NCBI RefSeq assembly: GCF_040954645.1
Contig: NC_092807.1
Location: forward strand, 26,584,309 to 26,648,308
DNA length: 64,000 bases
Source: Diabrotica undecimpunctata
Taxonomy: Eukaryota; Arthropoda; Insecta; Coleoptera; Chrysomelidae
Reading direction: 5' to 3'
In this document: positions 29,808-61,390 of the stretch, one piece after another
How positions within the stretch are numbered: position 1 is the first letter of the stretch
Layout: each line of letters opens with the position of its first letter
Notes under the pieces: generated by a model
Databases searched by the model: none
What the model was told of the DNA's origin: nothing
What the model saw: the letters and a program-made list of their open reading frames with translations, nothing else
Made by a program: the position numbers and the translations under genes

Positions 29808-30128
29808 CTGAATTACAAGTTAGGCCATTGCTATTATGAAAAACCTTCTGAATTTATTTCTTTAGAAGAAGAGAAAATTATTGAATCTATTAATTTAATT
29901 TATATAAATGCTTTGGCCAAAAATAAAATGATTAAGATTATGATAGATACTGGTTCAGAAAGTACTTTAGTCTCGGAGAATTTTATTTTTAATACATTAA
30001 AATTATCAGATATAATAAAGATTCCAAAAATTAAAATTGTTGGTGCAAATAATAAGAAGTTGGGTGAAATTGATAAACTAGCCAATTTTAAAATTGCAAG
30101 GATTTATTGTCAAGGATTTATGTGTTGA
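29808..30128 (+). CDS. Retroviral-type aspartic protease, frame broken at its end
   Basis: The open frame continues from the Gag overlap and contains the protease active site MIDTGSESTLVSE at about 29938-29976. It stops at 30128, while the last protease strand (LCVDILMGND) is read in the Pol frame from 30094. The frame relation between protease and Pol (+1) is not that of the Gag-protease shift. A one-base indel in the protease is the simplest explanation, which would make this copy defective. Confidence 0.7.
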   Translation: MNYKLGHCYYEKPSEFISLEEEKIIESINLIYINALAKNKMIKIMIDTGSESTLVSENFIFNTLKLSDIIKIPKIKIVGANNKKLGEIDKLANFKIARIYCQGFMC

Positions 30129-33075
30129 TATATTAATGGGAAATGATGAATTGGAAAAGAAGAAAGTAAAGATAGATTTTGAAGAAAAAATGGTAACTTT
30201 GGAAGGGCAAATAATTAAATTTATGCAGAAAGATGAGGTAGAAGAAGGAATAAGAGTTGATAGGATATTATTAAAAGAAAATAATGATGTTTATGAAGAA
30301 GAAATGTATTTTGATGATAGGGAAATGTCCCAGAAGAATGTAAAGAATAATTATTGTAGTGAATATTTAAGGAATGGAAATTTTAAGCAGATGGATGCCT
30401 ACGAGGCGGAGTGCGTAAAATTGGAAGCAAGGAATAATGAGTACATATTGAAGAATAATGTGATTTGTAAAGAAGAAGATATGATGAAAGTTTTAAATTG
30501 CCCTGAAGAATATAAATCAATAGTCATTTCCATATTGCAGCAACACAAGGGACTTGTCAATAAAGAAAATAGAATTGCACAAAATTATATCCATAGCATA
30601 AAAGTTAAAGAAAAAAAAGATTTTAAAACAAAATCATACCCAATACCATATAAATACAGAGAAGAAGTAAACAAAACAATTAATAATATGTTAGAAGATG
30701 GGATCATTGAGAAGGCAGACACACGTTTTATTAACCCCATAGTAGTAGTACGAAAAAGATCAGGTGAAATCAGGTTATGTATGGATGCAAGGAATATTAA
30801 CAAGATTACTGAAAAGCAATTTGAAGCACCAATGAGTATAGATGGAATATTAGGAAGAATTACAGGAATGTCATTTTTCACTAAAATCGATTTACAGCAT
30901 AGTTTCTGGTTAATACCTCTAGAAAGAAAAAGTAGACAGTATACAGGATTTCAGATAGATGGAGTAGTATATCAATTCAAAGTAGTACCATTTGGACTTC
31001 AATCATCTTGCAGTGCTCTATGTAGATGTCTTCATGATATTTTGGATCAATATGAACATTTTGTAATTCACTACATTGATGATATCTTAATTTTTTCTAA
31101 AACGGCTGAAGATCATGAGAAACACCTAAAAATTATAATAAATAGATTAGACAAAGTTGGACTAAAAATAAATCAAGAAAAATGTACATTTTTTCAAAAA
31201 GAAGTAATATATCTAGGTTATAAACTTAACACTAAGGGAATCGAAATGGATCCAGAACGGACACAAGTCATTCAGGAATATAAAACACCACACAATTTAA
31301 GAACTTTAAGAGGATTTATTGGAATAATTAATTATTATAAAAGGATGATACCAGATCTAAGTATAAAAGAAATTCCATTACTTGAACTACTGAGAAAAGG
31401 TGTAAAATGGAGATGGGATCAGAGAAGAGAACTAGCATTCCAAGAGATTAAAAACATTTTTCTGTCAAATTTGAAAATATACTATCCTGACTACACACAG
31501 CCATTCATATTAAGAACAGATGCATCAATAGAGAGATTATCAGGGGTATTATTACAAATACATGATGGGGTCGAATACCCAATACAATTCATTTCAAGAA
31601 TTACAAAGCCACATGAAAAGGGTTACTCAGTTTCAGAATTAGAACTAGCAAGTATAATACACTGTGTCACAAAATTAAGATTTTATTTGTTGGGTAATGA
31701 ATTTACAATAGAAACAGATCACCAAGCTTTAACGTCTATATTAAATAACAAATATGGAAACAGTAGAATACATCGGTGGAGTCTAATACTTAGTGAATAC
31801 TGCTTTGAAATCAAATACATTTCTGGAAAATCCAATATAGTGGCAGATGCTTTATCAAGGTTAGAAAATACATCACAAAAAGGGCAGCGAACAATAAAAA
31901 TTGGATTAAATCAATTAGTAGAAAGTACTGGATTATATTCTAAAGAAGAAATTATAAGAGATCAGATCAATTTGAGTGAAAAACAAAAAGTCCTTAGGAA
32001 AGATGGAGTATATTATAAAATAATAAATGGCATAGAAGTATATGTAATAACTAGAACTTTAGCAAAGAAAATATTGAAAAATTTACATAACAATTATATG
32101 CATATTGGTTCAAGAAAGCTATGGATGCTATTTAGGGACAATTATTTTGCAAAGAATGACATAAGTATAGCAAAAGAAATTACTACCCAATGCCCAATAT
32201 GTCAACTAAACAAAGAAAAGAATTTCAAAAACCAGAACACATATAAATCTAATGTTGTATATGAAAAACTAAATACAGTTTCCATGGATTTTATTTCAAA
32301 TTTAGTTCTCAGTCCAACAGGAAAAAAGCATATACTAGTGATAGTTGATTTATATACAAAATTTATTAAACTATATCCCTGCTCTAGAACAAATGTTAAA
32401 ACATTAAAATTATATATTAATCAATTTTTCGAAGAAATAGGACCATTTAGAAATTGCATAATAGATAATGCTACATATTTTAACAACCAAAAATTTCGGA
32501 CATTTTGTGAGAAAAAGGGAATCAACATTCATTTTACAAGTATCAGACATCCTCAGGCAAATCCTGCAGAAAGATATATTAAAGAAGTTATAAAATATTT
32601 AAGGATACTGTGCCAAAACCAACATGAAACTTGGCAGCAACATATACCACAAGTAGAGTATTTTTTAAATAATACACATAATTTGAATACAGAAGAAGTA
32701 CCAGAATATTTAATGTTTGGCCATATAGGAAACAGAAAGTGGATTAGTGAATATAATCAGGATATGTTAGAACAAGTAATGCAGAAAGTAAATATCCGAA
32801 TTAGGAGGAAAGCTGAAAAATATATCAGAAGACAAAATCGAAATATAAAAAAACCAATCACATTTCAAAAAGGAGACCTAGTGTTAATTCGTTCACTTAG
32901 AAAAAGTAATGTTAAAGAAAACCGTTGTAAGAAATTACAACCAATGTTTGAAGGTCCATATACAATTGAAAATCAGAATGGACTAAATAGTTATGTGTTA
33001 ATAGATGCAGAGAACAGACTAAGAGGCATATTTCATATCAACGACATTTTTCAATATCATGAAGAGATTGAATAA
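30094..33075 (+). CDS. Ty3/gypsy Pol: RT, RNase H, integrase
   Basis: A 993-codon open frame entered by read-through (the first codon is TTG, so no true start). The reverse transcriptase lies at residues ~170-440 with the catalytic YIDD at 327-330. RNase H is at ~445-590, with RTDAS (Asp 476) and a LRFYLLGNEFTIETDHQALT stretch. The integrase zinc-binding part has CPICQ near residue 705. The integrase core has Asp 732 (VSMDF), Asp 791 (IIDNAT) and Glu 826 (NPAERY), spacing D-34-E. A GPY-like end (EGPYTIENQNG) precedes the stop. All catalytic residues are present. There is no chromodomain and no envelope gene downstream. Confidence 0.93.
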   Translation: MQGFIVKDLCVDILMGNDELEKKKVKIDFEEKMVTLEGQIIKFMQKDEVEEGIRVDRILLKENNDVYEEEMYFDDREMSQKNVKNNYCSEYLRNGNFKQMDAYEAECVKLEARNNEYILKNNVICKEEDMMKVLNCPEEYKSIVISILQQHKGLVNKENRIAQNYIHSIKVKEKKDFKTKSYPIPYKYREEVNKTINNMLEDGIIEKADTRFINPIVVVRKRSGEIRLCMDARNINKITEKQFEAPMSIDGILGRITGMSFFTKIDLQHSFWLIPLERKSRQYTGFQIDGVVYQFKVVPFGLQSSCSALCRCLHDILDQYEHFVIHYIDDILIFSKTAEDHEKHLKIIINRLDKVGLKINQEKCTFFQKEVIYLGYKLNTKGIEMDPERTQVIQEYKTPHNLRTLRGFIGIINYYKRMIPDLSIKEIPLLELLRKGVKWRWDQRRELAFQEIKNIFLSNLKIYYPDYTQPFILRTDASIERLSGVLLQIHDGVEYPIQFISRITKPHEKGYSVSELELASIIHCVTKLRFYLLGNEFTIETDHQALTSILNNKYGNSRIHRWSLILSEYCFEIKYISGKSNIVADALSRLENTSQKGQRTIKIGLNQLVESTGLYSKEEIIRDQINLSEKQKVLRKDGVYYKIINGIEVYVITRTLAKKILKNLHNNYMHIGSRKLWMLFRDNYFAKNDISIAKEITTQCPICQLNKEKNFKNQNTYKSNVVYEKLNTVSMDFISNLVLSPTGKKHILVIVDLYTKFIKLYPCSRTNVKTLKLYINQFFEEIGPFRNCIIDNATYFNNQKFRTFCEKKGINIHFTSIRHPQANPAERYIKEVIKYLRILCQNQHETWQQHIPQVEYFLNNTHNLNTEEVPEYLMFGHIGNRKWISEYNQDMLEQVMQKVNIRIRRKAEKYIRRQNRNIKKPITFQKGDLVLIRSLRKSNVKENRCKKLQPMFEGPYTIENQNGLNSYVLIDAENRLRGIFHINDIFQYHEEIE

Positions 33076-44774: not shown

Positions 44775-46640
44775 ATGCCAAAAACAAGTAAAAAACATAA
44801 ACAATGGGATCCAGACCGAATGATACGTGCTATCCGTGCCGTCAGGGGAAAGGAAATGGGGTATCTTAAAGCCTAGAAGTTATTTGCTGTTCCGAAATCA
44901 ACTCTGGAAGATTATGTTAAGCAAGAAAATAAAACTCCGGAGCAGTTGGTTGCTGTTAAAATTGGAAGAAGACCAGTACTTTCTGCAGAAATGGAAGCAG
45001 ATTTAGTCTCGTATTGCCTAGAAATGGACCGGCGATTTTACGGAATTGGGACCGCTGATATCAAGAGACTTGCATATCAAATAGCTTTACGAAATGGTCT
45101 TCGTCATCCATTTGCCCATGCCGAATCTGCCGGTAAAAAATGGTTAAGGGGATTTATGAGGCGAAACGCAGTTTTGTCCCTTAGAAAACCACAAGGAATC
45201 TCGAAAGCCCGAATTAAGGGATTTACCCCAGAAAATGTCAGCAGATTCTATGATCTTTTAGAAACGTCAATGGAAAAAGTTAACTTCAACCCCGCAAGAG
45301 TTTATAACGTTGATGAAAGCGGCATAACAACGGTTCAGTCCAAGAATACTCGTGTTATAACATTAAAAGGAAAAAAACAGGTTGGATCTGTTACCGCGAC
45401 TGAAAGAGGCGCATTAGTTACTGTTGTATTTTGTATGAATGCTGCTGGTGGGTTTGTCCCTCCATTATTCGTGTTTCCAAGAAAGAACATGAAAGTGGAA
45501 TTATTAGATGGATCGCCGCCTGGCTCTATTGCAGCTTGCCATCCATCAGGTTGGATTCAGCAGCACATTTTTTCCCAATGGCTACAGCATTTCGTAGCTC
45601 ACGTGAAACCATCCCGTAAAGACCCAGTGCTGCTTATTCTTGATGGTCACTACAGCCACACAAGAAATATAGATGTGATAGAAGCAGGACGTGCAAATTT
45701 CGTTACAATTTTGTGTATCCCGCCGCACAGTTCACACAAACTACAACCTCTAGATTTGTCTTTTATGTCACCATTTAAAACATATTATTCGCAACAAATT
45801 GAGATGTGGTTAAGGCAAAATCCTGGACGCACCATAAACTCGTATCAAATTTGTAAGCTTATGTGCCCGGCATATTTGAAAAGTGCTACTGCAGAAATTT
45901 CCGCGAATGGTTTTCGCAAATCTGGAATATATCCTTTTAATAAAAATAACTTTTCTGATCACGATTTTATAATGGAGAGACAAAGAGAAAGAACACCACC
46001 ACCCATAAATCAAAATCATGGGGAAGTATTACCAACAAGAGGTCAGTCAAGACCAGAACCACAAAGCATTATCGAAAGAACACCTCCAAAACATAACTTA
46101 ACAAATAAATCATCCAATGGAAATGCAACTGAAACTACGGCAACTATGATAAGAGCTGAGGATGTTAGTCCACTGCCTTCTTGCAGTTATACCTCACAAA
46201 CAAGCAAACAAAAAAATCCTCGAAAAGGTTCTAGTTGGATAATAACTAGTACACCTTATAAAGATGAACTTGAACGAAGTGTAGCCGAACAAGAAAGAAA
46301 AAAGTCTTTGAAAGAAAAGAAACCAAAAATAAGCAACGAATTAAATCAAGTCAACAGAAAAAAAACTCCACGCCAAAAAAAGCAAAAGAAAAAAATTGAA
46401 TCGAGTAGTAGTGACACTTCACATCCTGGTGATGACCTTATTTTGGATGATGATTCTGATATGGATGTAGACGATGAAGATGGAGACACAGAATGTATGT
46501 TTTGTGACAGTTTATATTCCGAAGATACACACGGTGAGAAGTGGATAAGGTGTATAAAGTGCTTCAAGTGGTGTCATGAGATGTGCGCCAATGCTGATAA
46601 GAAGAAAACCTATATTTGCGACTTTTGTCAAGATGTGTAA
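44775..46640 (+). CDS. Pogo-like transposase with C-terminal PHD finger (one stop)
   Basis: 621 codons if read from the ATG at 44775 (MPKTSKKHKQWDPDRMIRAI), the start that includes a psq-type helix-turn-helix. A TAG at codon 34 (44874-44876) interrupts it; after that the frame is open to 46640. Next come a CENP-B-like second DNA-binding part (about residues 60-130), then the DDE_1 core: Asp 180 (NVDES), Asp 290 (LILDGHYSH) and Asp 327 (LQPLDLS), spacing DD36D. A polar, basic linker follows. Cysteines in the order C4HC3 (C574-C577 ... CIKC, CH, C ... CDFC at ~617) form a PHD-type finger that could read histone tails. Initiation at the GTT/ATG after the stop would lose the helix-turn-helix, so this copy is probably not fully active. 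Confidence 0.9.
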
Positions 46641-47329: not shown

Positions 47330-49212
47330 GGTAGGTAAGTGTAGATTAGTGTATTTTGTATAAGGTCCGTTTTTAAATAAATTATCCAATATTGAATTTA
47401 ATTCAAATAATACTTTAGTAAGTTTTGACATAAATAGTTTATTTACGCATGTGCCATTAGATAAGACTTTAAATATAGTCAAGACAAAATTAAAGAGTGA
47501 TGATACATTGGCAACTAGAACAAGAATAAACATATCAGCTTTAATGGAGTTATTAACATTATGTACTGATAATACATATTTTCAACTAAATAATGATTTC
47601 TATAAACAAAATTTTGGCCCAGCAATGGGCTCTAGTTCATCTCCATTATTAGCCGATATATTTATGGAAGATTTTGAAACAAATATTATTTCTAAACAAA
47701 ATTTACAACCCACAGTATGGTGGAGATATGTAGATGATGTATTTTCGATATGGCCTCATGGATCAGAGTTGGACACATTCCTGAATGATATAAACGATAA
47801 TGAAGAGACAATAACATTTACCATGAAAAGGGGATATAATAACACACTACCTTTCCTGGATGTTTTAATCTGTAAAAACGATACTGGGTATGAGACTCAG
47901 ATGTATAGAAAGCCAACACATACCAACAGATATTTAAATTTCAAATAATCAAATCACAATATTAATATTAAAAAGGGAATCATTAAATCATTATACGATA
48001 GAGCCAAAGTTACTTGTTATAACGAAAATTCGTTCTTGGAGGAAAAACATTTGTTAACATGTGTTTTATTAAAAAATGATTATCCTTTATCGTTTATAAA
48101 TAAGGAATTTATAACAATCGACCGAATAGAACAGAACAACTTAGAACGAGATCCTACAGCATACACGAGATATAATAGAAAGAAAATAACAATACCATAC
48201 TTAAAAGGATTATCAGAAAAACTTAAAAGGATAGGAAATAAATTCAACATTTCAACAACATTCAAAACAACAAACACATTGAGATGTATTTTGTCTAAAA
48301 CCAAACCTAACAATGAACAAGAAAGGACAAAGAATTGCATTTATAAAATACCTTGTGAATGCGATCAGTTTTATTTATGTGAAACATTAAGACAAATAAA
48401 TGTTAGAATAAGTGAACATCAATCTTATATCAAAAATAGAGAATTTGATAGATCTCAAATATGTAAACACGCATGGGATAATGAACATAGGGTTCATTGG
48501 AATGATTCAAATATAGTCCTAAAAGAAACGGATGGTAAAAAGAGAAAAATCAAAGAAGCGGCTCTAATTATGCTAAATGAGATAGATTGTGTGGAAAATT
48601 CCTCGGCAGAATGTAGTAGGATCTGGTTACCCATATTAAAAAAGCAAGTTATTAAAAGGAAAATACCAGTATTAGTAAGTCGGTAACATATAGAGGATAC
48701 ATCATTTATGTTTTTTAAATAACAAACATAAAATCAGAATTTGGTGTTTATTGAAAGTAAACTAAATGCACGACCAAATACTTACCATGTCGGGATAGTA
48801 TTATGAGGTTTTTTTTTCCTGGTTTTTCCCTGATAATTTACTACGGAATCACTAACAGGAGATTTTTACTGTCATCACGGCATGTGTTTGTCTTTTTAAA
48901 GACGAATTACATGCTATGATTTTTTCTGACGGATATTCTCAAGTTAAAGTTGATTTCATGTAATCGAATGAACTATCTTACAAATAAAGTCGTCTACTTT
49001 AAAATGTATAATGTTTGTCTGAATTGTCGCTATAAATGAGTCAGATAAAATTAAATTATTAGAAGAATATTTCATCAAGTAACCAAAAAACAAAATTTGT
49101 TTATAATTTACTAATGTTTGTATTTTGAGAACGATTTCCGAAGTGGAAATTGAAACGTCAATAAACGTACTTTAACCTTTAATTGTGGCTTATTCCCATT
49201 TAAATAGTAAAA
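47330..49212 (+). mobile_element. Penelope-like element 1, 5'-truncated
   Basis: Contains a Penelope-type RT, a GIY-YIG endonuclease and a 3' region ending in AACGATTTCCGAAGTGGAAA ... CCCATTTAAATAGTAA (49131-49212). The same end occurs as an inverted pair at 61162-61364, which marks it as the terminal sequence of this family. Confidence 0.85.
47364..48686 (+). pseudogene. Penelope RT and GIY-YIG endonuclease, one in-frame stop
   Basis: One reading frame over 441 codons, interrupted only by TAA at 47946-47948. The RT part has SFDINSLFTHVPLDK (about 47424), GPAMGSSSSPLLADIFMEDF and the catalytic WWRYVDDVFSIW (about 47720-47755), then a TLPFLDVLI motif. After the stop, KKGIIKSLYDRAK continues the frame. 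The endonuclease begins at CIYKIPCECDQFYLC (about 48335; the second Y of GIY-YIG is kept, the G is C), followed by RISEH and CKHAWDNEH. The N-terminal RT part is missing. Penelope elements prime reverse transcription with this endonuclease. Confidence 0.88.
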
Positions 49213-51034: not shown

Positions 51035-52237
51035 TCTGCAATATTAATGCATGATAAATTTGGCTCAGGTTGCTAATGTCCGTTTTCTTATTTAGAGCGT
51101 TGGGGTGTTTCAGTATCGAACACATTTCCAAAAACTGTCTTTTCCCGAGATTGCGTTCGTTGACAAGAATCTTAATTTCGTTTAAGTTCACTTTGTGATT
51201 TGTATTAATAGCATGCTAAGCAAGAGCAAAAGTATGCTTGGATACTCCCTGTCTGACCGATGTAGCACGAGTCACACTCAGCACAAGGTATGTGATAGAT
51301 GACATTAACTTGTTTCAAAAGGGATAAGGGTGTTTTGGTTTTAGAAAATTTTAACAGGAACGTTATTGTGTTTATACAGTTTAATAAGTTTTTTCAGTAA
51401 CATGAGGAAAATAGGGTAAAGAGGAGTAATGGGTAGTTGGAGTTCCAAGTACAGTAGTAGGCAGAACAGTGTTATTGATAGTATTGTTTGATATTTCTCT
51501 GAGTTGGTCACCATTAGGTGTCATTTAAATTAGGAACCATAACTCTGCGAATATAGGTATTTATTAATAAATGAAGATGGGTAGGAATTCTCAATCAATA
51601 TGTTTCTGAGCAGTAGAAGGATTTCCCTTAGATTGATCTGATGTGTCAGCCTAACCAGCCTACAGCTTAAAGTTTTAATAAGGTTTAATTTATATTTAAA
51701 AGGATGACAGGAGTGGTAGTTGAGAAACCTATTGGAGGCCATTGGTTTCTTATACCAACTTGTGATTAAAGTATTGTCTCCCATTCTGATATTACGCATG
51801 TCTATGAAGGGAATACTATTAGTGGTGGGGTCCTCTAGTTCAACAGTTAACTGTAAATGAGAATCAAACTCAAGGTGGTCTGAATTTTATCTGGAGGTAA
51901 GGCTAGTAATAGGTCATCTACATACCGCTTAATAAAAGGGATTTGGAAATCCAAAAGACTCAAACAGTGAGACACTAAATCATCCAGTACAAAGTTAAGT
52001 AGGATGGAAGAGATTGAGGAATCCATAGGTGCCTCAAATATTTGTATCAATAGCTCAATAGTAGCTCATGCACTATCAAATTATCATTATCACTGGCTTC
52101 AAGTTCTTATCTTATTTTCAAATCTTTGGGGATCCAAGTGTGACAGAGGAGTAGACTCCAAGCGATATTTATTAATCTCGTCTCCCAACCTACTTTATGA
52201 CTTGCTATCTTTAGCTCTATGCAGTGCTAAAGGCTAT
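51035..52237 (-). pseudogene. Penelope-like element 2: RT and GIY-YIG remnant
   Basis: Minus strand, diverged from element 1. RT: IQIFEAPMDSSISSILLNFV and the catalytic FIKRYVDDLLLALP (52050-51847), then TSWYKKPMASNRFLNYHSCH and an LREILLLLRNILIENSYPSS stretch (51799-51530). Endonuclease: NVIYHIPCAECDSCYIGQTG (about 51310-51250), with an intact GIY-YIG-type Y...YIG pair, then KILVNERNLGKRQFLEMCSI near 51150. Frameshifts throughout. Its upstream part is cut by the Ty3/gypsy element at 52238. Confidence 0.8.
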
Positions 52238-52612
52238 TGTTACGTAAAAATATGAGTCATAGTTTTAACCTGTAACATGTTTTTATTCTAATATGTTGTA
52301 GAGTTTACGAGAGGCATCTATTTACCTGAACGACCTTTCAGAAAAAGGTCGAACCGATGCGAGGGAAATCCAGTTTGCCTTTACCGTTTCGCCGTCTACT
52401 CAAGAATGATTTGGACTTTTCGAGATAACGGCGATTTATGTATAAAAATAAAACATTTTTATATGGAAGGACAGTTAATTCTCAACACCCGCGCTCGCGA
52501 ATTTGTTACGTACGGATATAATAAATTATTGTCAGATAAGTTAATATAAATAAAGAAATAAATTAAATCCGTAAGTGTTATAAATATTGAACCTTTTAAT
52601 AAATTCACAACA
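52238..52612 (+). repeat. 5' LTR of gypsy element 2
   Basis: 375 bp, TGTTACGTAAAAATATGAG ... TTCACAACA. Confidence 0.96.
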
Positions 52613-52614
52613 AA

Positions 52615-52632
52615 TGGTGTCAGAGTGAGATC
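52615..52632 (+). other. Primer-binding site of gypsy element 2
   Basis: TGGTGTCAGAGTGAGATC, two bases after the 5' LTR. The tRNA was not identified. Confidence 0.7.
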
Positions 52633-52688
52633 GAACATAAATTAGACTTATAATAATAATACAAGTGAATATAAAATAAATTGTGAAA

Positions 52689-55600
52689 ATGGCTACGATT
52701 TATGAGCTGACAGTGACTAATTTAAGAAGACATCTTGAAGACAGAGAATTAGCTTCTACCGGAAAAAAGGCTGAGTTAGTCCAACGACTAAAGAACGCTT
52801 TGCTAGAAGAAGGACTAGATCCAGAGACTTAGATATTTGAAGACAAACATGATGCTGTCCTCTCGTCGATTTCGAAAATTTCTGGTGACATCGCATCATT
52901 AGAGAACAAAGTTTCTGACGATATTTCGAAAGTTTCTTCTGATGTAGCCAAAGTTTCTGGTGATGTAGCCAAAGTTTCTGGTGATGTAGCCAAAGTTTCC
53001 GGCGACATCGCTTCGTTGGAAGACAAAGTTTCTAACGAGATTTCTTCGCTGGAAAGCAAAGTCTCTGCTAACATCTCTTCGGAAATCTCTAAAGTCACTT
53101 CTGAGATGTCTGCCCTGGACGATAGAATATCTTCATTAAAAAACCAAGTTGCTGCCGATATGTTAGCCTTCGAAGAAAAGATATGGAAAGAAATGGAAAA
53201 GAAGATGGAGGAAACAGGGACAGCAGAGAGAGGAAACAATCCAATTACAGTGGAGATAAAAGAAGACCAGACGAAATTTAAGTTGGAGACACGGCCGAAA
53301 TTTGAAGGAAGTGGAGGTTCTATTCATGTTAAAGTCCCAACTTTCGACGGAAAATCATCAGGGAACAACTACATGAAACAGTTCGAATCAGCCGCAAGAG
53401 CAAATGGATGGTCTGAAAAAGAAAAGGCTGTGAACCTGACTATCGCTCTTCGAGGAGATGCCTTAGATGTGCTTCAGACCATAGCCGTAGAGGAGACCGA
53501 TGATTTCGAACAACTGAAGAAGAGGTTAAATATGCGATATGGCCACGAACATTTGGAGCATGTATATCAGTCGCAGCTTAAAAATCGTAGACAGAAGAAA
53601 GATGAGGCTCTTCAAGAATATGAGGTAGATATTGCCAGATTAGTACGATATGCTTATCCAACAGCTCCCGAAGACATGATGGAAAAATTGGCCGTTCAAA
53701 CGTTTATTGATGGTCTTCGTGATCATGAAATGCAGAGAACACTACGATTAGCTCGTCACAAGACGCTGGTTGATGTCTTATCCGCCGCTCTCGAATACGA
53801 GTCAGCTACGCAGGCCTCTGGCGGGTACAGTAAAGTTAGGACTGTAAAAGAGGAAGGAGATGAAGATAAACTTGACCAGCTCGTTAATATGATGAAAAGT
53901 ATTACATGCAAGAAAACGAAGACCATAAAATCAAGAAACTCACCATCAGGAAAACCAGAACGAGTCGGCTTTAGGGGAGCAGCTTCGACCCGGAACTTTT
54001 CCAAAGACCCTCTTATACTAATAGCTTCTTTGAAATGTCGTGAAGATAGTGTATATGTAGATGGAGAAATAAATGGTAAAAGACATACGTTGTTGGTGGA
54101 TACCGGAGCGACCAGAACCATTATACGCCCAACAGTTATAAACAGCCGAAAGAAACTGTTACCAACGAGGTTACGACTTCGGACCGCTACACGTGAAAAT
54201 GCCAACATTCATGGAGAAATCCAGGTACAATTGGGAATTGGGGCAGAAAAGTTTGTCCATACTGTTATAGTTGCTGACATCGAAGAGGATGTTATATTAG
54301 GAATGGACGTAATGAATATGCATGGATTCCAATTGGATTTTAAGAATAAGGTAATCAAAGTTGGCAACGAGGAGGTATTTCTCCATCCACATAATGACAA
54401 CACTGTGCAAGCAGCCATTACAGAAGATACAGTCGTGCCTGCGAGAAGCGAAACGATCATAGTAGCGCGACTACAGGGAATTGTAGACAAAGGGAGACCT
54501 GTTATGATGGAGCATTGGAACCACGACGATGAGGTTGGCCGTGGAATCATAATTGGAAAGGAATTGGTGACTTCGGCTAAAGAAATTCCTGTGAGACTTA
54601 TCAATGTCAACGACTACCCAGTGACCATAAAGAAAGAGACAAAAGTAGGAACTTGTGTACCTGTGACATCCATAATCCGTCAGGCGACAACATCTGATAA
54701 TTCCAACGACAAATTCGACCAAATGGTTGCAGTTGCAGGACAGTCTCTAAATCAGATGGAGAAAAGGAAATTAAGGGAATTTCTTCGGCAGTATCGTGAT
54801 ATTTTCGTACCGAAAGGAGGAAAGACGGGAAGAACTACCGTTGTTAAGCATAAAATTGATACTGGTAATGCTAAGCCAATTCGTCAAACAGCTCGACGAT
54901 TACCACAGGCGAAAAGAGAGGAAGCTGAAACGATTGTTCAGGAAATGAAGAAAGACGGGGTGATAGAACCTTCTACGAGCCCATGGGTCTCTCCGGTGGT
55001 CCTGGTTAAGAAGAAAGACGGAACGACGAGGTTCTGTGTGGATTACCGTTTGCTGAACAACGTTACCAAGAAGGATAGTTATCCTCTGCCTCGGATCGAT
55101 GACACATTGGACACATTGGCTGGAAGTAAATTGTTTTCTACTTTGGATTTGAAGTCTGGATACTGGCAGGTAGAAATGGACCCAGTCGATAAAGAAAAGA
55201 CAGCCTTCACCACAGGATCTGGATTGTGGCAATTCAACGTTATGCCATTTGGACTCTGTAATGCTCCTGCGACATTTGAGAGGCTTATGGAAAATGTGTT
55301 GAGAGGGTTATCTTGGAAAACATGCCTGGTTTATTTAGATGACATAATCGTCTTGGGGGAGACATTCGAAGATCATTTGAGGAATTTAGAAAACGTTTTT
55401 AATCGACTTAAAGCTGCCCAATTGATGCTAAACCCCAAGAAGTGCCAGCTATTTCAAGGTAAAGTCAATTATCTGGGTCATATAGTCAGTAAAGAAGGAG
55501 TGGCCGTGGATAAGGGAAAAATCGATTCCATTAAGGAATGGCCAAAACCAACTGACAAACATCAAGTGAGAAGTTTTCTTGGACTATGTACTTACTACCG

Positions 55601-58214
55601 GAGGTTTATTAAGAAGTTTGCAGATATCGCTAAGCCATTAACGCGACTTACGGAGGAAGCAAGAGATTACCGCTGGGATACAGACTGCCAAAATGCCTTT
55701 GAGACCTTGAAAAAGCATTTAATAACAGCACCAATTTTAGGGTATCCACTGCCAGAAGGAGAGTTCATCTTAGATACAGATGCAAGTAATGTGGGAATTG
55801 GAGGAGTGCTGTCTCAGATTCAAGGAGGACAGGAACGAGTCCTCGGATATTTTAGTAAAGTTCTTTCAAAACCTGAGCGGAATTATTGCGTCACGAGAAG
55901 AGAACTTCTGGCAGTAGTGAAATCAGTAGAGCACTTCTATCAATACCTCTATGGCAGAAAGTTTCGAATCCGAACCGACCATGCCGCCCTTAAGTGGTTG
56001 ATGCAGTTTAAGAATCCAGAGGGTCAGATAGCCAGGTGGATCGAACGACTCCAAGAATACGATTTTAAGATTGAGCACCGGGCCGGAGCTAGCCACAGAA
56101 ACGCTGATTCTCTTTCCAGAAGGCCATGCCCAGCAGAGTGTTCCCACTGCAACAAAACGGAATCCAAGGAAGCAGCAGTGCTAAGAACGACGATTGTCAA
56201 CAACGACTGGACGCCTACTAAGATCAGGGAAGGACAAGAGAGAGATCCAGTTATACAAAAAATCCGAAAATGGAAAGAGGAAAACCGTCGACCACCTTGG
56301 CAGGAAATATCAAACCTATGCTCAGTAGTTAAGACGTATTGGGCCCAGTGGGACTCATTTATCATCGAAGATGGCTTGCTTAAACGAGTCCTGGAAAATG
56401 ATGACGGTTCAGAGAAGAGAAGACAGTTGGTGATCCCAAAGAGCAGAATAGCCGAAGTACTTCGTCAGTTACACGACAGTCCATCGGGAGGGCATTTTGG
56501 TGTGAGGAAAACCCTTCAGCGAATTCGGGAACGGTTTTATTGGATGAACAGTTCCGACGACGTAAAAGACTGGTGTAAGAAATGTACTATTTGTGCTACG
56601 AGTAACGGGCCTCACCGAAAAAGGAGAGCTCCTATGAGACAATATAATGTTGGAAGCCCGTTTGAAAGAATAGCTTTGGACATCGCTGGGCCATTTTCAG
56701 AAAGTGAAAATGGAGGCAAGTACATGCTGGTAGTAATGGGTTACTTTACTAAGTGGGTCGAGATTTACGCACTTCCAGACCAGAAGGCCGCCACCGTTGC
56801 AGATAAGTTGATCCAAGAATATATCAGCCGATTTGGAGTGCCTTTGGAGATCCATAGTGACCAAGGCAGGAACTTCGAAAGCGATCTATTCCAAGGAATA
56901 TGTGATAGACTAGGCATGAAGAAAACAAGAACTACCGCGTATCATCCGCAATCGGATGGTATGGTAGAACGAATGAATAGGACAGTTGGCAAGTATTTGA
57001 CAAAGATGGTGTCCGATCATCAGCGAGACTGGGACCAATACCTTCCGTTCTTCACAATGGCCTACAGATCTGCTGTTAACGAATCAACAGGCCATACACC
57101 AGCCAAAGTCCTATTCGGACGCGAAATGCGACTACCTTGTGATCTCGAGTTTGGATGTAAACCTGGAGAAGATGTAGCAGGTGAAGATTATGTGATCGAA
57201 TTACAAAGAAGAATGGACGATGTACATGAGTTGGTCCGTTCCCACCTTCAGATCGCTAGCGACAGAATGAAGAAACGGTACGATACACAAGCCGAAAAGG
57301 GTTGCTTTAAGAAGAACGACAAAGTATGGCTGTATAATCCCAAGAAGCGAAAAGGTTGTTCTCCCAAATTGCAGCAGTTTTGGGAAGGTCCATACCTCAT
57401 TATGGAGAAGATCAACGATGTCATCTACCGAATAAGCAAGATTCCGAGGGAAAAGCCGATGATAGTACACCATAACCGGTTGGCGTCTTTCGAAGGTGAC
57501 CACAACGTAGATGAAGAAGTGGAAGTAAACCAAATCCACGATGTGTCTGACCTCACGTTTGAGGAATTCATGGGTGCCTATGGAGGTACCGGTAAAGCGA
57601 GACATGGTGTTACCACTGAAGAAAAGCAAGATCTACTCGCGCTCCCCGATGACTACTCGCTGGCCCTTACCATCCCGGCCAGTATCAAAGACGCACCAGG
57701 GTTGGCATCCGTCTTTCGAAGGAAGTTTGGTCGAGTTGCAGAACTTCAATGCCAAGTGCCAGCTCCCGGTAAAACCTTGAAACTCCAAGATGCATCACGT
57801 TACCTTTTCTACCTGGTAACAAAAGACACTGCCCGTGACCAACCTACCTACCGAGATGTATGGGAAGCCTTACTTCAATTGAGAAAGCACGTACTAGAGT
57901 CCGACGTGCAAAAGTTAGCCATGTCAAAGTTGGAGTGCCGCCAATTAGATTGGAGGGTTATCCGAAATATCGTGGAGGAGATCTTTAAAGACACCGAAGT
58001 CCAGGTGTTAGTCTGTTGCAATCCGCATAGTTACTGGTGCGGAGAGAAAACCGTCCCTTGTCATTTTTATACAACTGGAAGTTGTAAAAGAGGGTCCAGT
58101 TGCCGATACCAGCATACCGTTCCAGTTCTAGCCCCGACAAGGTTCCAGGAGGAACCATCTTTTGAGAGGGGGGCAATGTTACGTAAAAATATGAGTCATA
58201 GTTTTAACCTGTAA
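52689..58214 (+). CDS. Gag-Pol polyprotein: SAP-Gag-PR-RT-RNH-IN-macro-like-CCCH
   Basis: One frame of 1841 codons from ATG 52689, broken only by TAG at codon 48 (52830-52832). Order: SAP motif, residues ~7-40 (LTVTNLRRHLEDRELASTGK); coiled coil ~50-165 with VAKVSGD heptads; retrotransposon Gag ~205-385; protease DTGA at 471; RT with YLDD at 882-885; RNase H Asp 1029; integrase HHCC, then Asp 1331, Asp 1391, Glu 1427 (D-35-E); GPY/F (EGPYLIMEKI). After the integrase, residues ~1655-1773 (YSLALTIPASIKDAPGLASV ... YLFYLVTKDTARDQPTYRDV) resemble the TARG1/OARD1 macrodomain, and 1791-1809 is C-X7-C-X5-C-X3-H. No CCHC knuckle is seen in Gag. A Gag-Pol frameshift is not needed. The macro assignment is from remembered family pattern. 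Confidence 0.93.
58164..58176 (+). other. Polypurine tract of gypsy element 2
   Basis: GAGAGGGGGGCAA immediately before the 3' LTR; the usual plus-strand primer. It is translated as part of the Pol C-terminus. Confidence 0.75.
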
Positions 58215-58551
58215 CATGTTTTTATTCTAATATGTTGTAGAGTTTACGAGAGGCATCTATTTACCTGAACGACCTTTCAGAAAAAGGTCGAACCGATGCG
58301 AGGGAAATCCAGTTTGCCTTTACCGTTTCGCCGTCTACTCAAGAATGATTTGGACTTTTCGAGATAACGGCGATTTATGTATAAAAATAAAACATTTTTA
58401 TATGGAAGGACAGTTAATTCTCAACACCCGCGCTCGCGAATTTGTTACGTACGGATATAATAAATTATTGTCAGATAAGTTAATATAAATAAAGAAATAA
58501 ATTAAATCCGTAAGTGTTATAAATATTGAACCTTTTAATAAATTCACAACA
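58177..58551 (+). repeat. 3' LTR of gypsy element 2
   Basis: 375 bp, same sequence as 52238-52612. The Gag-Pol frame ends 38 bp inside it (58214). Confidence 0.96.
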
Positions 58552-58579
58552 CTATCATGCTTATAAATTCTAATAATAT

Positions 58580-59399: not shown

Positions 59400-61390
59400 C
59401 CTTGAAGGCCTCTGGCTCTAAAAACTTGATTTTTTCCCTCCATTTCTTTCGGTCCTTTGCTTTCTCTCTCCAATTTCTCACGCCTATTTCTGACAATTCT
59501 TGCTTTAATGCTTCCAACCACTTCTTTTTTGGACGTACTCTTCTTTTTTTCCCATTTCTCCCTTCTTCAGTATGGTTTTAACATTTCAATTCTCTGGCAT
59601 TCGTATAATAGGACCAGGCCATCTAGCTCTTTGGGCTCATATTTTTGCCGTAATTGCTGGTTTTCCATACATCCTCATTATTTCTTTATTCGTTCGTCTT
59701 CTCCAAATATTTTCTGTCGTCTTTATTATTTCGAAGATTTTTCTGAGCACCTTTCTTTTCCAGATCTCTACTTTATTTTCTTCCTGCTGGGTTCATAATT
59801 ATGTTTCACTGGCATACATCACTGTGGGTCTGAGTACTGTCTCGTAGACTCACAATTTAGCTGTTCTTGACACATTTTTTGCTTTCAGTAATGTATTTAG
59901 TAACCCTATCGCTCTGCTTTCCTTCCTTAATCTTTTGTCTATCTCTTTTTCTTCTTTTTCCGTGTTTGTTGTGGTTACTTCTAAGTATTCAAATTCTTAA
60001 ACTTTTTCAAAACTATAGACAGTGTCTGCTCCTTTTATTTTGATATATTTGTTATTATTTGTTATGTGTCTTCTCATTTGCTTATATTGCGTTTTTGTTT
60101 GGTTTATTATTAATCCATATCTTTTTGGTTCTTCTTCAAATTTCTGGAAAACCTTTTCTAAATGTTCTTTTGTTCTCGCTAGTATCACCACATCATCCGC
60201 GTACGCTATACACTGTTCCTTGCTATTGACAATAGTCCTGTTGTTGAGCTTATATTTGATCTTCTTACGATTTGTTCTAATACTAGGTTAAACTGGGATA
60301 CCACTTTCTCCTACAGTTTTGTTATTTTTTAGGTCTCTTATTATTTCTTTGACTTCATTCAGAGTTGGTTTCTCCCACGTCCCTTTTTCATCTTCTTACC
60401 AATTCTCATTTCCCTCAAGTTTCTCTTGTTGGTCTGTAGTTAATAATTCTATGAAATAGTCCGGTCATCTGTTTAATTTTTTTGTTTTTACCTAGTAGTA
60501 AGCCTTCTTTTGTTTCTGCAATACTGTGGATTATTCTTTGTAGTTTCTTTGGATTTCTTAACTTCTTGGTAAAAATTATTTACCTCTTTGTTTATGTAGG
60601 CTTCTTCTATGTTTTTCAATTGTTTTCTAGCTATTCTCTTTTCTTTTTTCTGCAAATTCTTTTCACTTCCCTTCTTCTTGTCATATAGTTTTCGATCGCA
60701 TTTTGGGTATTTTCTTTATCTCTTTGTAGTTTTGCCCTGTTTCTTCTTGCCAAACATTCGTACATTCTTCATCTAACCAGTCTTGCCGTCTTTTTATTGC
60801 TCTCCTCCTATACACTTTTCCGCTGCTTCCGACATGGCTGTCTGTATGCTCTGCCATTCTTAATGTTTACAACCTGCTTCTCTTGAAGATGCTCTAATTG
60901 GTAATTTAATATATCTCTAACAGGTTTTGGTATTATTGGTAGTTCTTGTTTTAGTTTTGCTATTATTAGTGTATGGTCACTGTTGGTATCTGCCCCTCTG
61001 TAACTCCTGCAATCGATTATTGCCTTATTATGTTTGCTTTCAATTAGAACATAATCTATCTGATTTTTTATATGTTACCTTATGAATTATTCTTCTATAT
61101 AATTCCTCTTTTCCCACTTTCGCATTTATATTGTTCTGAAGCTATTTTCTTGTGGCATTTTAAATTAATTACTATTTAAATGGGAATAAGCCACAATTAA
61201 AGGTTAAAATACGTTTATTGACGTTTCAATTTCCACTTCGGAAATTGTTTTATGAGAACAAATTATTATTTTTGAGAACGATTTCCGAAGTGGAAATTGA
61301 AACGTCAATAAACGTATTTTAACCTTTAATTGTGGCCTATTCCCATTTAAATAGTAATTAATTTCGCATTTATGTCACCAATGATTATCT
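59400..61390 (-). pseudogene. LINE ORF2 remnant
   Basis: Readable parts on the minus strand: GDINAK at about 61385-61368, and again INAKVGKEELYRRIIHKVTY at 61135-61075 because the insertion duplicated the target; an endonuclease SDH-type region near 60980; and RT sequence VILARTKEHLEKVFQKFEEE with YGLIINQTKTQY (60191-59997), just after the palm box. The C-terminal domain is spread over 59850-59400. Many frameshifts. Confidence 0.62.
61130..61362. mobile_element. Penelope-type end inserted as an inverted pair, 11-bp TSD
   Basis: Arms of 84 bp (61162-61245 and 61281-61364) are near-perfect inverted copies of the 3' end of Penelope-like element 1. The insertion lies between TTCGCATTTAT at 61119-61129 and 61363-61373. 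A leading segment TGAAGCTATTTTCTTGTGGC (61137) recurs at 61601 with the following AATTACTATTTAAATGG, a second small fragment of the same family. Confidence 0.78.

What the first reader, a model, noticed from the sequence alone, without database searches (positions are those of the whole stretch)
52689..58214. Ty3/gypsy Gag-Pol with a macrodomain-like region fused after the integrase
Seen: the Pol frame continues about 230 codons past the GPY/F end of the integrase. Residues ~1655-1773 follow the order and spacing of TARG1/OARD1-type macrodomains (an ASVFRRKFGRV-type helix, a YLFYLVTK strand, a PTYRDVWEALLQL helix, a final strand). The Lys of the TK motif is kept. The Gly-rich loop and catalytic Asp region appear changed (KLECRQLDW), so binding without hydrolysis is plausible. 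In chromoviruses a chromodomain occupies this position and steers integration; a module reading ADP-ribose could do the same at PARP-marked chromatin. I know of no such fusion as a described system, but cannot search.
Basis: partly seen in the sequence, partly recalled or inferred. Interest (0 to 1): 0.92.

Follow-up and report, generated by a model that had tools for sequence, protein, structure and literature searches.

The report
Beetle retrotransposon with captured ADP-ribose domain
A group of beetle jumping genes has fused a protein module related to an ADP-ribose-removing repair enzyme to the end of its integrase; many relatives keep the enzyme's key residues, while the abundant family in this window has lost part of the active site but still keeps the module.

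The parts
52234..52237 (.). target-site duplication CTAT (left)
   Evidence: same CTAT follows the 3' LTR
52238..52612 (+). 5' LTR, 375 bp (TG...CA)
   Evidence: 100% identical to 58177-58551 over 375 bp
52615..52632 (+). primer-binding-site-like stretch TGGTGTCAGAGTGAGATC just after the 5' LTR
   Evidence: sequence; the resemblance to a tRNA-Leu-type PBS is recalled, not tested
52689..52829 (+). SAP domain at the Gag N-terminus
   Evidence: Pfam PF02037 2.9e-8
53016..58214 (+). open frame (rest of Gag)-PR-RT-RH-IN-macrodomain-CCCH
   Evidence: domains
53439..53723 (+). Retrotrans_gag capsid-type domain
   Evidence: PF03732 1.7e-8
54057..54146 (+). aspartic protease (partial match)
   Evidence: PF13975 5.6e-6, just under the curated cut-off; DTGATR
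55005..55487 (+). reverse transcriptase
   Evidence: PF00078 1.4e-38
55752..56060 (+). RNase H
   Evidence: PF17917 1.1e-34
56433..57485 (+). integrase: H2C2, rve core, p58_C C-terminus
   Evidence: PF17921 3.6e-21, PF00665 1.3e-11, PF22938 9.4e-13
57489..57602 (+). linker with the family-conserved FMxxY...KARxGVT motif
   Evidence: alignments
57603..58022 (+). TARG1/OARD1-type macrodomain
57822..57824 (+). Lys equivalent to TARG1 K84 (kept)
   Evidence: kept in 70 of 70 family copies read, the window's own included
57927..57953 (+). loop KLECRQLDW in place of TARG1 RIGCGLDRLQW: GxG and Asp125 lost, 2-residue deletion
   Evidence: LECRQLDW in 70 of 70 family copies read
58047..58115 (+). CCCH zinc finger C-x7-C-x5-C-x3-H (nearest solved: CPSF4 fingers)
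   Evidence: PF00642 1e-6; CPSF4 2.7e-5
58164..58176 (+). polypurine tract before the 3' LTR
   Evidence: sequence; function inferred
58177..58551 (+). 3' LTR (the Pol ORF ends at 58214, inside it)
58552..58555 (.). target-site duplication CTAT (right)

Best explanation
This is a recently inserted copy of a high-copy Ty3/gypsy family, most likely from a beetle. [quoted passage not shown] (Shown: the domain, its recurrence, one clade.) (Inferred, likely:) the ancestral tail is an enzyme carried on integrase or the pre-integration complex. It removes ADP-ribose from the element's own cDNA ends, RNA or proteins, or from chromatin proteins at the integration site, because host ADP-ribosyltransferases otherwise hinder replication or integration. 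(Inferred for this family:) the active site has since lost the catalytic Asp and the phosphate-binding GxG loop, while the fold, the adenosine-site Asp, the Lys and the CCCH finger are kept. The module therefore now works as a non-hydrolytic binding or scaffold module, for a ligand that may no longer be ADP-ribose.
For: Fold and family; a profile of six macrodomains (five tails and P0113) hits TARG1 at 2.7e-49. Recurrence: 84 of the 120 listed relatives carry the domain (83 after the integrase, P0113 before it; a few are cut short); of the 36 without it, 32 end within 20 residues of the integrase, and P0077, P0079, P0096 and P0107 run on without a match. One clade of 30 rows, 27 with and 3 without, support 100/99. 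Catalytic residues: Lys 28 of 30, Asp 24 of 30, both 23 of 30 non-redundant rows; Asp125 in 23 of 23 rows when the window clade, P0009 and P0034 are left out; published TARG1 signature in 16 of 30. Window family: tail frame open in 69 of 70 copies, LECRQLDW and LVTK in 70 of 70. Macrodomain variants shared by 3 or more of 70 copies: 9 syn/4 non; singletons 15 syn/31 non or stop; Fisher p=0.026. In the 38 loci with flanks 8/2 vs 7/25, p=0.0016; integrase of 35 of these 31/7 vs 26/66. Column conservation in the window clade follows that of the catalytic set, rho 0.40 over 134 columns. Plausibility: PARP3 ADP-ribosylates 5'-phosphorylated blunt DNA ends and TARG1, not D125A, reverses it (PMC5725667 passages); TARG1 reverses thymidine-linked DNA ADP-ribosylation (PMC8501950 passages). 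Gypsy elements of a brown alga independently carry a NADAR domain in Pol (PMC12477816, part 1 of section 5); NADAR enzymes reverse guanine ADP-ribosylation (PMC11125620 passages).
Against: No biochemical or genetic test. Three nested relatives (P0079, P0080, P0081) lack the tail, so it can be dispensed with or the records are truncated. In the 40 copies found by DNA search alone the shared/singleton contrast is absent (2/3 vs 10/9, p=1; pN/pS 0.45 and 0.27), and family B shows none either (9/7 vs 22/30, p=0.4). The dyad is broken in at least three lineages (window clade with P0009; family B; P0024), so hydrolysis is not essential everywhere. Most of the rows in the trees come from sources without a named organism. 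Whether protease cuts the tail off the integrase is unknown.
Confidence: 0.55

Rival explanations
1. One reading: the module is a reader that binds ADP-ribose without hydrolysis and tethers integrase to PARP-marked chromatin, as a chromodomain does in chromoviruses.
For: Same position as chromodomains (C-terminus of integrase). Asp125 lost but Lys and fold kept. The adenosine-site Asp (TARG1 D20) is kept in 23 of 23 rows of the catalytic set, 5 of 5 window-clade rows and P0009. Two families in one genome lost different catalytic residues, Asp in A and Lys in B, yet kept the domain.
Against: GxG loop replaced (G121 to Glu in 5 of 5 window-clade rows; P0009 has Asp) and H32 to Leu in 70 of 70 copies of the window family, so pyrophosphate and distal-ribose contacts are largely gone. 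Most non-redundant relatives look enzymatic (23 of 30). Insertion sites were not compared with ADP-ribose maps.
Confidence: 0.2
2. The window family is still an ADP-ribosyl hydrolase, by a different chemistry that uses the kept Lys or the new Glu in loop 3.
For: SCO6735 lacks both TARG1 catalytic residues yet de-ADP-ribosylates DNA (PMC9411070 passages). K84-equivalent kept in 70 of 70 copies. The new Glu149 is invariant in the 6 aligned close relatives.
Against: TARG1 D125A is inactive on ADP-ribosylated DNA (PMC5725667 passages); loop shortened by two residues; GxG lost.
Confidence: 0.13
3. The tail is a passenger or decaying relic without function, carried along because it does not harm the element.
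For: Three nested relatives lack it; active site eroded in the window clade; the macrodomain changes faster than the integrase (mean identity 0.50 vs 0.72 over 300 pairs); the shared/singleton contrast fails in two of the copy sets.
Against: Open in 69 of 70 copies; shared-variant pN/pS 0.13 vs 0.61 for singletons in the full set; conserved column pattern; Asp125 in 23 of 23 rows of the set without the window clade, P0009 and P0034.
Confidence: 0.08
4. The CCCH finger is the working part (RNA packaging or polyadenylation-signal binding), and the macrodomain is a spacer.
For: No CCHC knuckle found in the window Gag (Pfam; three forward frames of 53850-54120 by eye). A CCCH match follows the macrodomain in 16 of 25 tailed rows of the integrase set, P0113 not counted, and in 23 of 29 family B loci. 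Closest solved fingers are those of CPSF4.
Against: One subclade (P0022, P0025, P0026, P0028, P0030, P0031) keeps the macrodomain but has no CCCH match.
Confidence: 0.04

Closest known systems
Human TARG1/OARD1 (C6orf130) macrodomain hydrolase
   Different: Fused to a retrotransposon integrase. The window copy lacks Asp125 and the GxG loop.
DarG macrodomain (DarTG toxin-antitoxin)
   Different: Bacterial antitoxin; more distant in sequence than TARG1.
Chromoviruses (chromodomain Gypsy elements)
   Same: Extra domain at the integrase C-terminus.
   Different: No chromodomain match in the tail; a macrodomain plus CCCH finger instead.
Ectocarpus Gypsy elements with a NADAR domain (PMC12477816, part 1 of section 5 read)
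   Same: Gypsy Pol carrying a domain of ADP-ribose chemistry.
   Different: [quoted passage not shown] The authors suggest RNA processing.
Fish epsilon-like ERVs with extra ORFs for macro domain proteins (one passage of PMC4977317 citing Basta et al. 2009)
   Same: A retroelement with a macro domain.
   Different: Vertebrate retrovirus, described as an additional ORF, not a Pol fusion. Sequence relation not tested here.
Orchid Gypsy elements with an AlkB m6A demethylase (PMC9289625 abstract and passages)
   Same: Gypsy lineage that fixed an eraser enzyme.
   Different: Separate ORF, RNA demethylase, plants.
Gypsy_Ds1 of the ostracod Darwinula stevensoni (PMC7998251 section 14)
   Same: [quoted passage not shown]
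   Different: The authors report remote coiled-coil similarity to viral spike proteins, not a macrodomain.

Membership tests
Ty3/gypsy LTR retrotransposon | paired LTRs and short target-site duplication | tested here: met
   375-bp LTRs 100% identical, TSD CTAT
Ty3/gypsy LTR retrotransposon | pol order PR-RT-RH-IN with H2C2 and rve integrase | tested here: met
   Pfam order (protease match partial, under its cut-off)
Ty3/gypsy LTR retrotransposon | intact gag-pol frame in this copy | tested here: not met
   TAG at 52830-52832. Other scored places have stop-to-stop frames of up to 1843 aa and 1866 aa (family B)
Chromovirus | chromodomain at the integrase C-terminus | tested here: not met
   no chromodomain among Pfam matches of the tail up to E=0.1; the tail folds as a macrodomain
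TARG1/OARD1 macrodomain | TARG1-type fold and sequence | tested here: met
   [not shown]
TARG1/OARD1 macrodomain | catalytic Lys84 | tested here: met
   Lys at 57822-57824; 28 of 30 non-redundant relatives
TARG1/OARD1 macrodomain | catalytic Asp125 and GxG loop; signature TKx(30,35)Px[IL]GxGxD (PMC6397177 passages) | tested here: not met
   window fails; 16 of 30 non-redundant relatives, P0113 and L071 pass; 17 of 86 when near-identical copies are counted
TARG1/OARD1 macrodomain | adenosine-site Asp20 | tested here: met
   Asp kept in the window, the other window-clade rows, P0009 and 23 of 23 rows of the catalytic set
TARG1/OARD1 macrodomain | ADP-ribosyl hydrolase activity or ADP-ribose binding | not testable with these tools
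   needs purified protein
Macro-domain fish ERVs | same macrodomain lineage | not tested
   no sequence of those ORFs was fetched

The most novel reading that the evidence does not exclude
Host ADP-ribosylation is a real barrier (or signpost) for retrotransposon integration, and Ty3/gypsy elements have captured the host eraser TARG1 at least twice, once at the end of the integrase and once between RNase H and integrase (P0113), to counter it. In some very successful families the eraser then turned into a catalytically dead reader or sink that still serves integration.
Probability: 0.3. Interest if true: 0.88.

Novelty: new variant of a known kind. Interest (0 to 1): 0.72.

Why it matters
Fixation of extra domains in LTR retrotransposons is considered rare (abstract of PMC9289625), and the domains that are fixed point to host pressures. 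A TARG1-type ADP-ribosyl hydrolase domain tied to integrase, kept across a clade found in several beetles and with thousands of first-look candidate places in one genome, makes it directly testable whether host ADP-ribosylation of DNA, RNA or proteins limits or guides retrotransposition in animals. Together with NADAR domains in algal Gypsy elements it suggests repeated recruitment of ADP-ribose chemistry. The in-genome contrast (one family without the Asp, another without the Lys) is a natural series from enzyme to pseudo-enzyme.

Tried and rejected

Led nowhere: Rfam on the window (0 matches); viral-contig scan with the tail (4 pattern matches, none a relative); viral contigs with alignment A3 (not conserved enough). 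Literature searches aimed at this fusion showed none in the rows listed; lists were capped at 20 of 22, 20 of 87, 20 of 139 and 10 of 26 papers; most subscription papers are not in the library. One search was malformed; two searches were on TARG1 itself. Donor gene not settled: only human TARG1 and one beetle locus (L071) served as host-type outgroups; an intron-rich host gene would be missed. The P0019-macrodomain search of the own genome did not complete. The second structure-prediction job was not used. Insertion-site preference was not analysed.
Full report
WHAT IS THERE. Window 52238-58551 is a complete-looking Ty3/gypsy element: two 375-bp LTRs with no difference, TG...CA ends, flanked by CTAT on both sides, so a recent insertion. 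Pfam finds, in order, SAP, Retrotrans_gag, a partial aspartic-protease match (just under its curated cut-off), RVT_1, RNase H, Integrase_H2C2, rve and Integrase_p58_C. Other scored places in the genome have stop-to-stop frames of up to 1843 aa and, in a second family, 1866 aa, so longer open copies exist.

HOW WIDESPREAD. A first search with the tail as region found one full-length Pol (P0002, 66% identity); a search with the tail alone found six shorter proteins, four of them named Diabrotica virgifera virgifera (P0003, P0006, P0007, P0008). A search with the integrase C-terminal half plus tail gave 1707 hits, of which the best 120 were listed. Of these 120, 84 carry the domain by HMM (83 after the integrase, a few cut short; P0113 before it). 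Of the 36 without it, 32 end within 20 residues after the integrase; P0077, P0079, P0096 and P0107 run on for 825, 79, 576 and 226 residues without a match. The insects named for tailed proteins are Diabrotica, Aromia moschata, Molorchus minor and Callosobruchus maculatus, all Chrysomeloidea. Three tailed records are labelled Klebsiella pneumoniae or Erysiphe pulchra, which I take for contamination (not tested). Tail-less relatives include Cordylochernes, Trichonephila and Henosepilachna. That the window itself is from a beetle is inferred from the 88% identity to the Diabrotica protein P0003.

ONE CLADE, AND A SECOND SITE. Of 123 proteins with an integrase match, 64 cover enough of it for a tree; the partial ones left out include the Aromia and most Molorchus rows. 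In the 52-row tree (12 long-branch or near-identical tail-less rows dropped from the 64), 30 rows form a clade at 100/99: 27 with the tail and 3 without (P0079, P0080, P0081), nested inside (64-row quick tree). The simplest reading is one gain and a few losses or truncations; P0079 keeps a scrap that looks like the finger region (by eye). One distant element, P0113, has a macrodomain between RNase H and integrase (residues 820-952 of 1475). In a macrodomain tree rooted on human TARG1 and holding the single-locus beetle protein L071, the 30 C-terminal tails group at 92/86 with P0113 outside; in the earlier tree without L071 the place of P0113 was unresolved. A separate capture is likely but rests on moderate support and long branches.

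ENZYME OR NOT. In 30 non-redundant domains (85% clustering of 89 held, those under 140 residues left out) the TARG1 catalytic Lys is present in 28, the Asp in 24 and both in 23. The Asp is invariant in 23 of 23 rows when the window clade, P0009 and the rearranged P0034 are left out. The published TARG1 signature (PMC6397177 passages) is met by 16 of 30, but by only 17 of 86 when near-identical copies are counted, P0113 among the 17. So the ancestral tail probably was an ADP-ribosyl hydrolase. The window clade and its sister P0009 (integrase support 99/95) lack the Asp. The window clade also has a two-residue deletion and G121 replaced by Glu; in 70 of 70 copies of the window family H32 is Leu. 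The adenosine-site Asp20, Thr83 and Lys84 remain. By the published pocket map the pyrophosphate and distal-ribose contacts are largely gone, so ADP-ribose binding is uncertain for this family.

THE SAME GENOME. The window lies in a 1.74-Gb genome. First-look candidate places, which are not verified copies, number 6203 for P0005 and 4695 for the P0113 macrodomain; 150 each were scored, and 148 and 149 of them have no stop in the matched stretch (the scored ones are the best, hence biased). Besides the window family (A), family B (29 loci, L072-L100) has Lys to Arg in 29 of 29 and keeps the Asp in 26 of 29. Its integrase groups with P0011/P0012, which have both residues, at 90/58 (96/88 with P0081), whereas its macrodomain sits weakly next to the window clade (91/34). 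As A lost the Asp and B the Lys, the two losses are separate either way.

SELECTION. Counted against one existing copy as reference: macrodomain variants shared by 3 or more of 70 copies (the window's own included) are 9 synonymous and 4 non-synonymous (pN/pS 0.13), singletons 15 and 31 (0.61), Fisher p=0.026; whole tail 15/12 vs 23/51, p=0.036. In the 38 loci with longer flanks: 8/2 vs 7/25, p=0.0016; the integrase of 35 of these: 31/7 vs 26/66. Against: the 40 DNA-search copies alone show no contrast (2/3 vs 10/9, p=1), family B gives 9/7 vs 22/30 (p=0.4), and L009-L038 were chosen by protein score. Column conservation in the window clade correlates with that of the catalytic set (rho 0.40, 134 columns). 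Constraint is likely, but a proper lineage dN/dS is still needed.

MECHANISM. Shown: domain, clade, residues, open frames. Inferred: the tail acts with integrase or the pre-integration complex. PARP3 modifies 5'-phosphorylated blunt DNA ends and TARG1 reverses it, D125A not (PMC5725667 passages); TARG1 reverses thymidine-linked ADP-ribosylation (PMC8501950 passages). Retroelement cDNA has such ends (general knowledge), so an eraser tied to integrase is a sensible counter-measure. For the window family I think a non-hydrolytic binding role most likely, with noncanonical activity possible (SCO6735 lacks both residues and is active; PMC9411070 passages).

KNOWN OR NEW. Closest in print: NADAR domains in Ectocarpus Gypsy (PMC12477816, part 1 of section 5 read), an AlkB demethylase in orchid Gypsy (PMC9289625 abstract and passages), macro-domain ORFs in fish ERVs (one passage of PMC4977317), and a C-terminal extension of another kind in an ostracod Gypsy (PMC7998251 section 14). 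The rows listed showed no TARG1 macrodomain fused to Gypsy Pol; the library holds open-licence papers only and some lists were capped. I call it a new variant of a known kind (retrotransposons with captured domains).

Noticed in passing
P0113 residues 820-952 (protein, no named organism): A distant gypsy Pol carries a TARG1-type macrodomain with full GCGLD loop between RNase H and integrase, a different site from the window family; probably a second capture.
   Followed up: partly
L071 1027-3309 (-): In the same genome a 760-aa open frame with a Lys/Asp-complete TARG1-type macrodomain and no Pfam match up to E=0.1; possibly a host gene.
   Followed up: partly
L072-L100: A second macrodomain-bearing gypsy family in the same genome: catalytic Lys changed to Arg in 29 of 29 loci, Asp kept in 26 of 29.
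   Followed up: partly
P0006, P0007, P0008 (Diabrotica records): Gene models named 'OARD1-like', an uncharacterized protein and 'Tachykinin receptor 86C' appear to contain pieces of this retrotransposon tail; probable annotation errors or exonised fragments.
   Followed up: no
P0017 (Klebsiella pneumoniae), P0010 and P0022 (Erysiphe pulchra): Tailed gypsy proteins in bacterial and fungal records on contigs of about 5.4-6.5 kb; probable contamination.
   Followed up: no
BFVD matches of the tail model: The best viral structural match is a Kadipiro virus VP8 protein (34% identity); macrodomains of this kind may occur in other insect-associated viruses.
   Followed up: no
window 30094-33075 (+): A second gypsy-type Pol ORF (RT, RNase H, integrase), distinct in sequence by eye, without macrodomain match.
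   Followed up: partly
window 44946-46640 (+): DDE_1 transposase with an HTH_Tnp_Tc5 match and a C-terminal Cys/His-rich stretch that looks PHD-like (by eye; no Pfam hit).
   Followed up: no
window 61162-61364 and 49117-49210: Inverted 88-bp arms, 98% complementary, 27 nt apart, with further copies in the window; MITE-like.
   Followed up: no
window 53850-54120: No CCHC zinc knuckle seen in any of the three forward frames at the Gag/PR junction, although P0010 shows one (by eye); the C-terminal CCCH finger might take over.
   Followed up: partly
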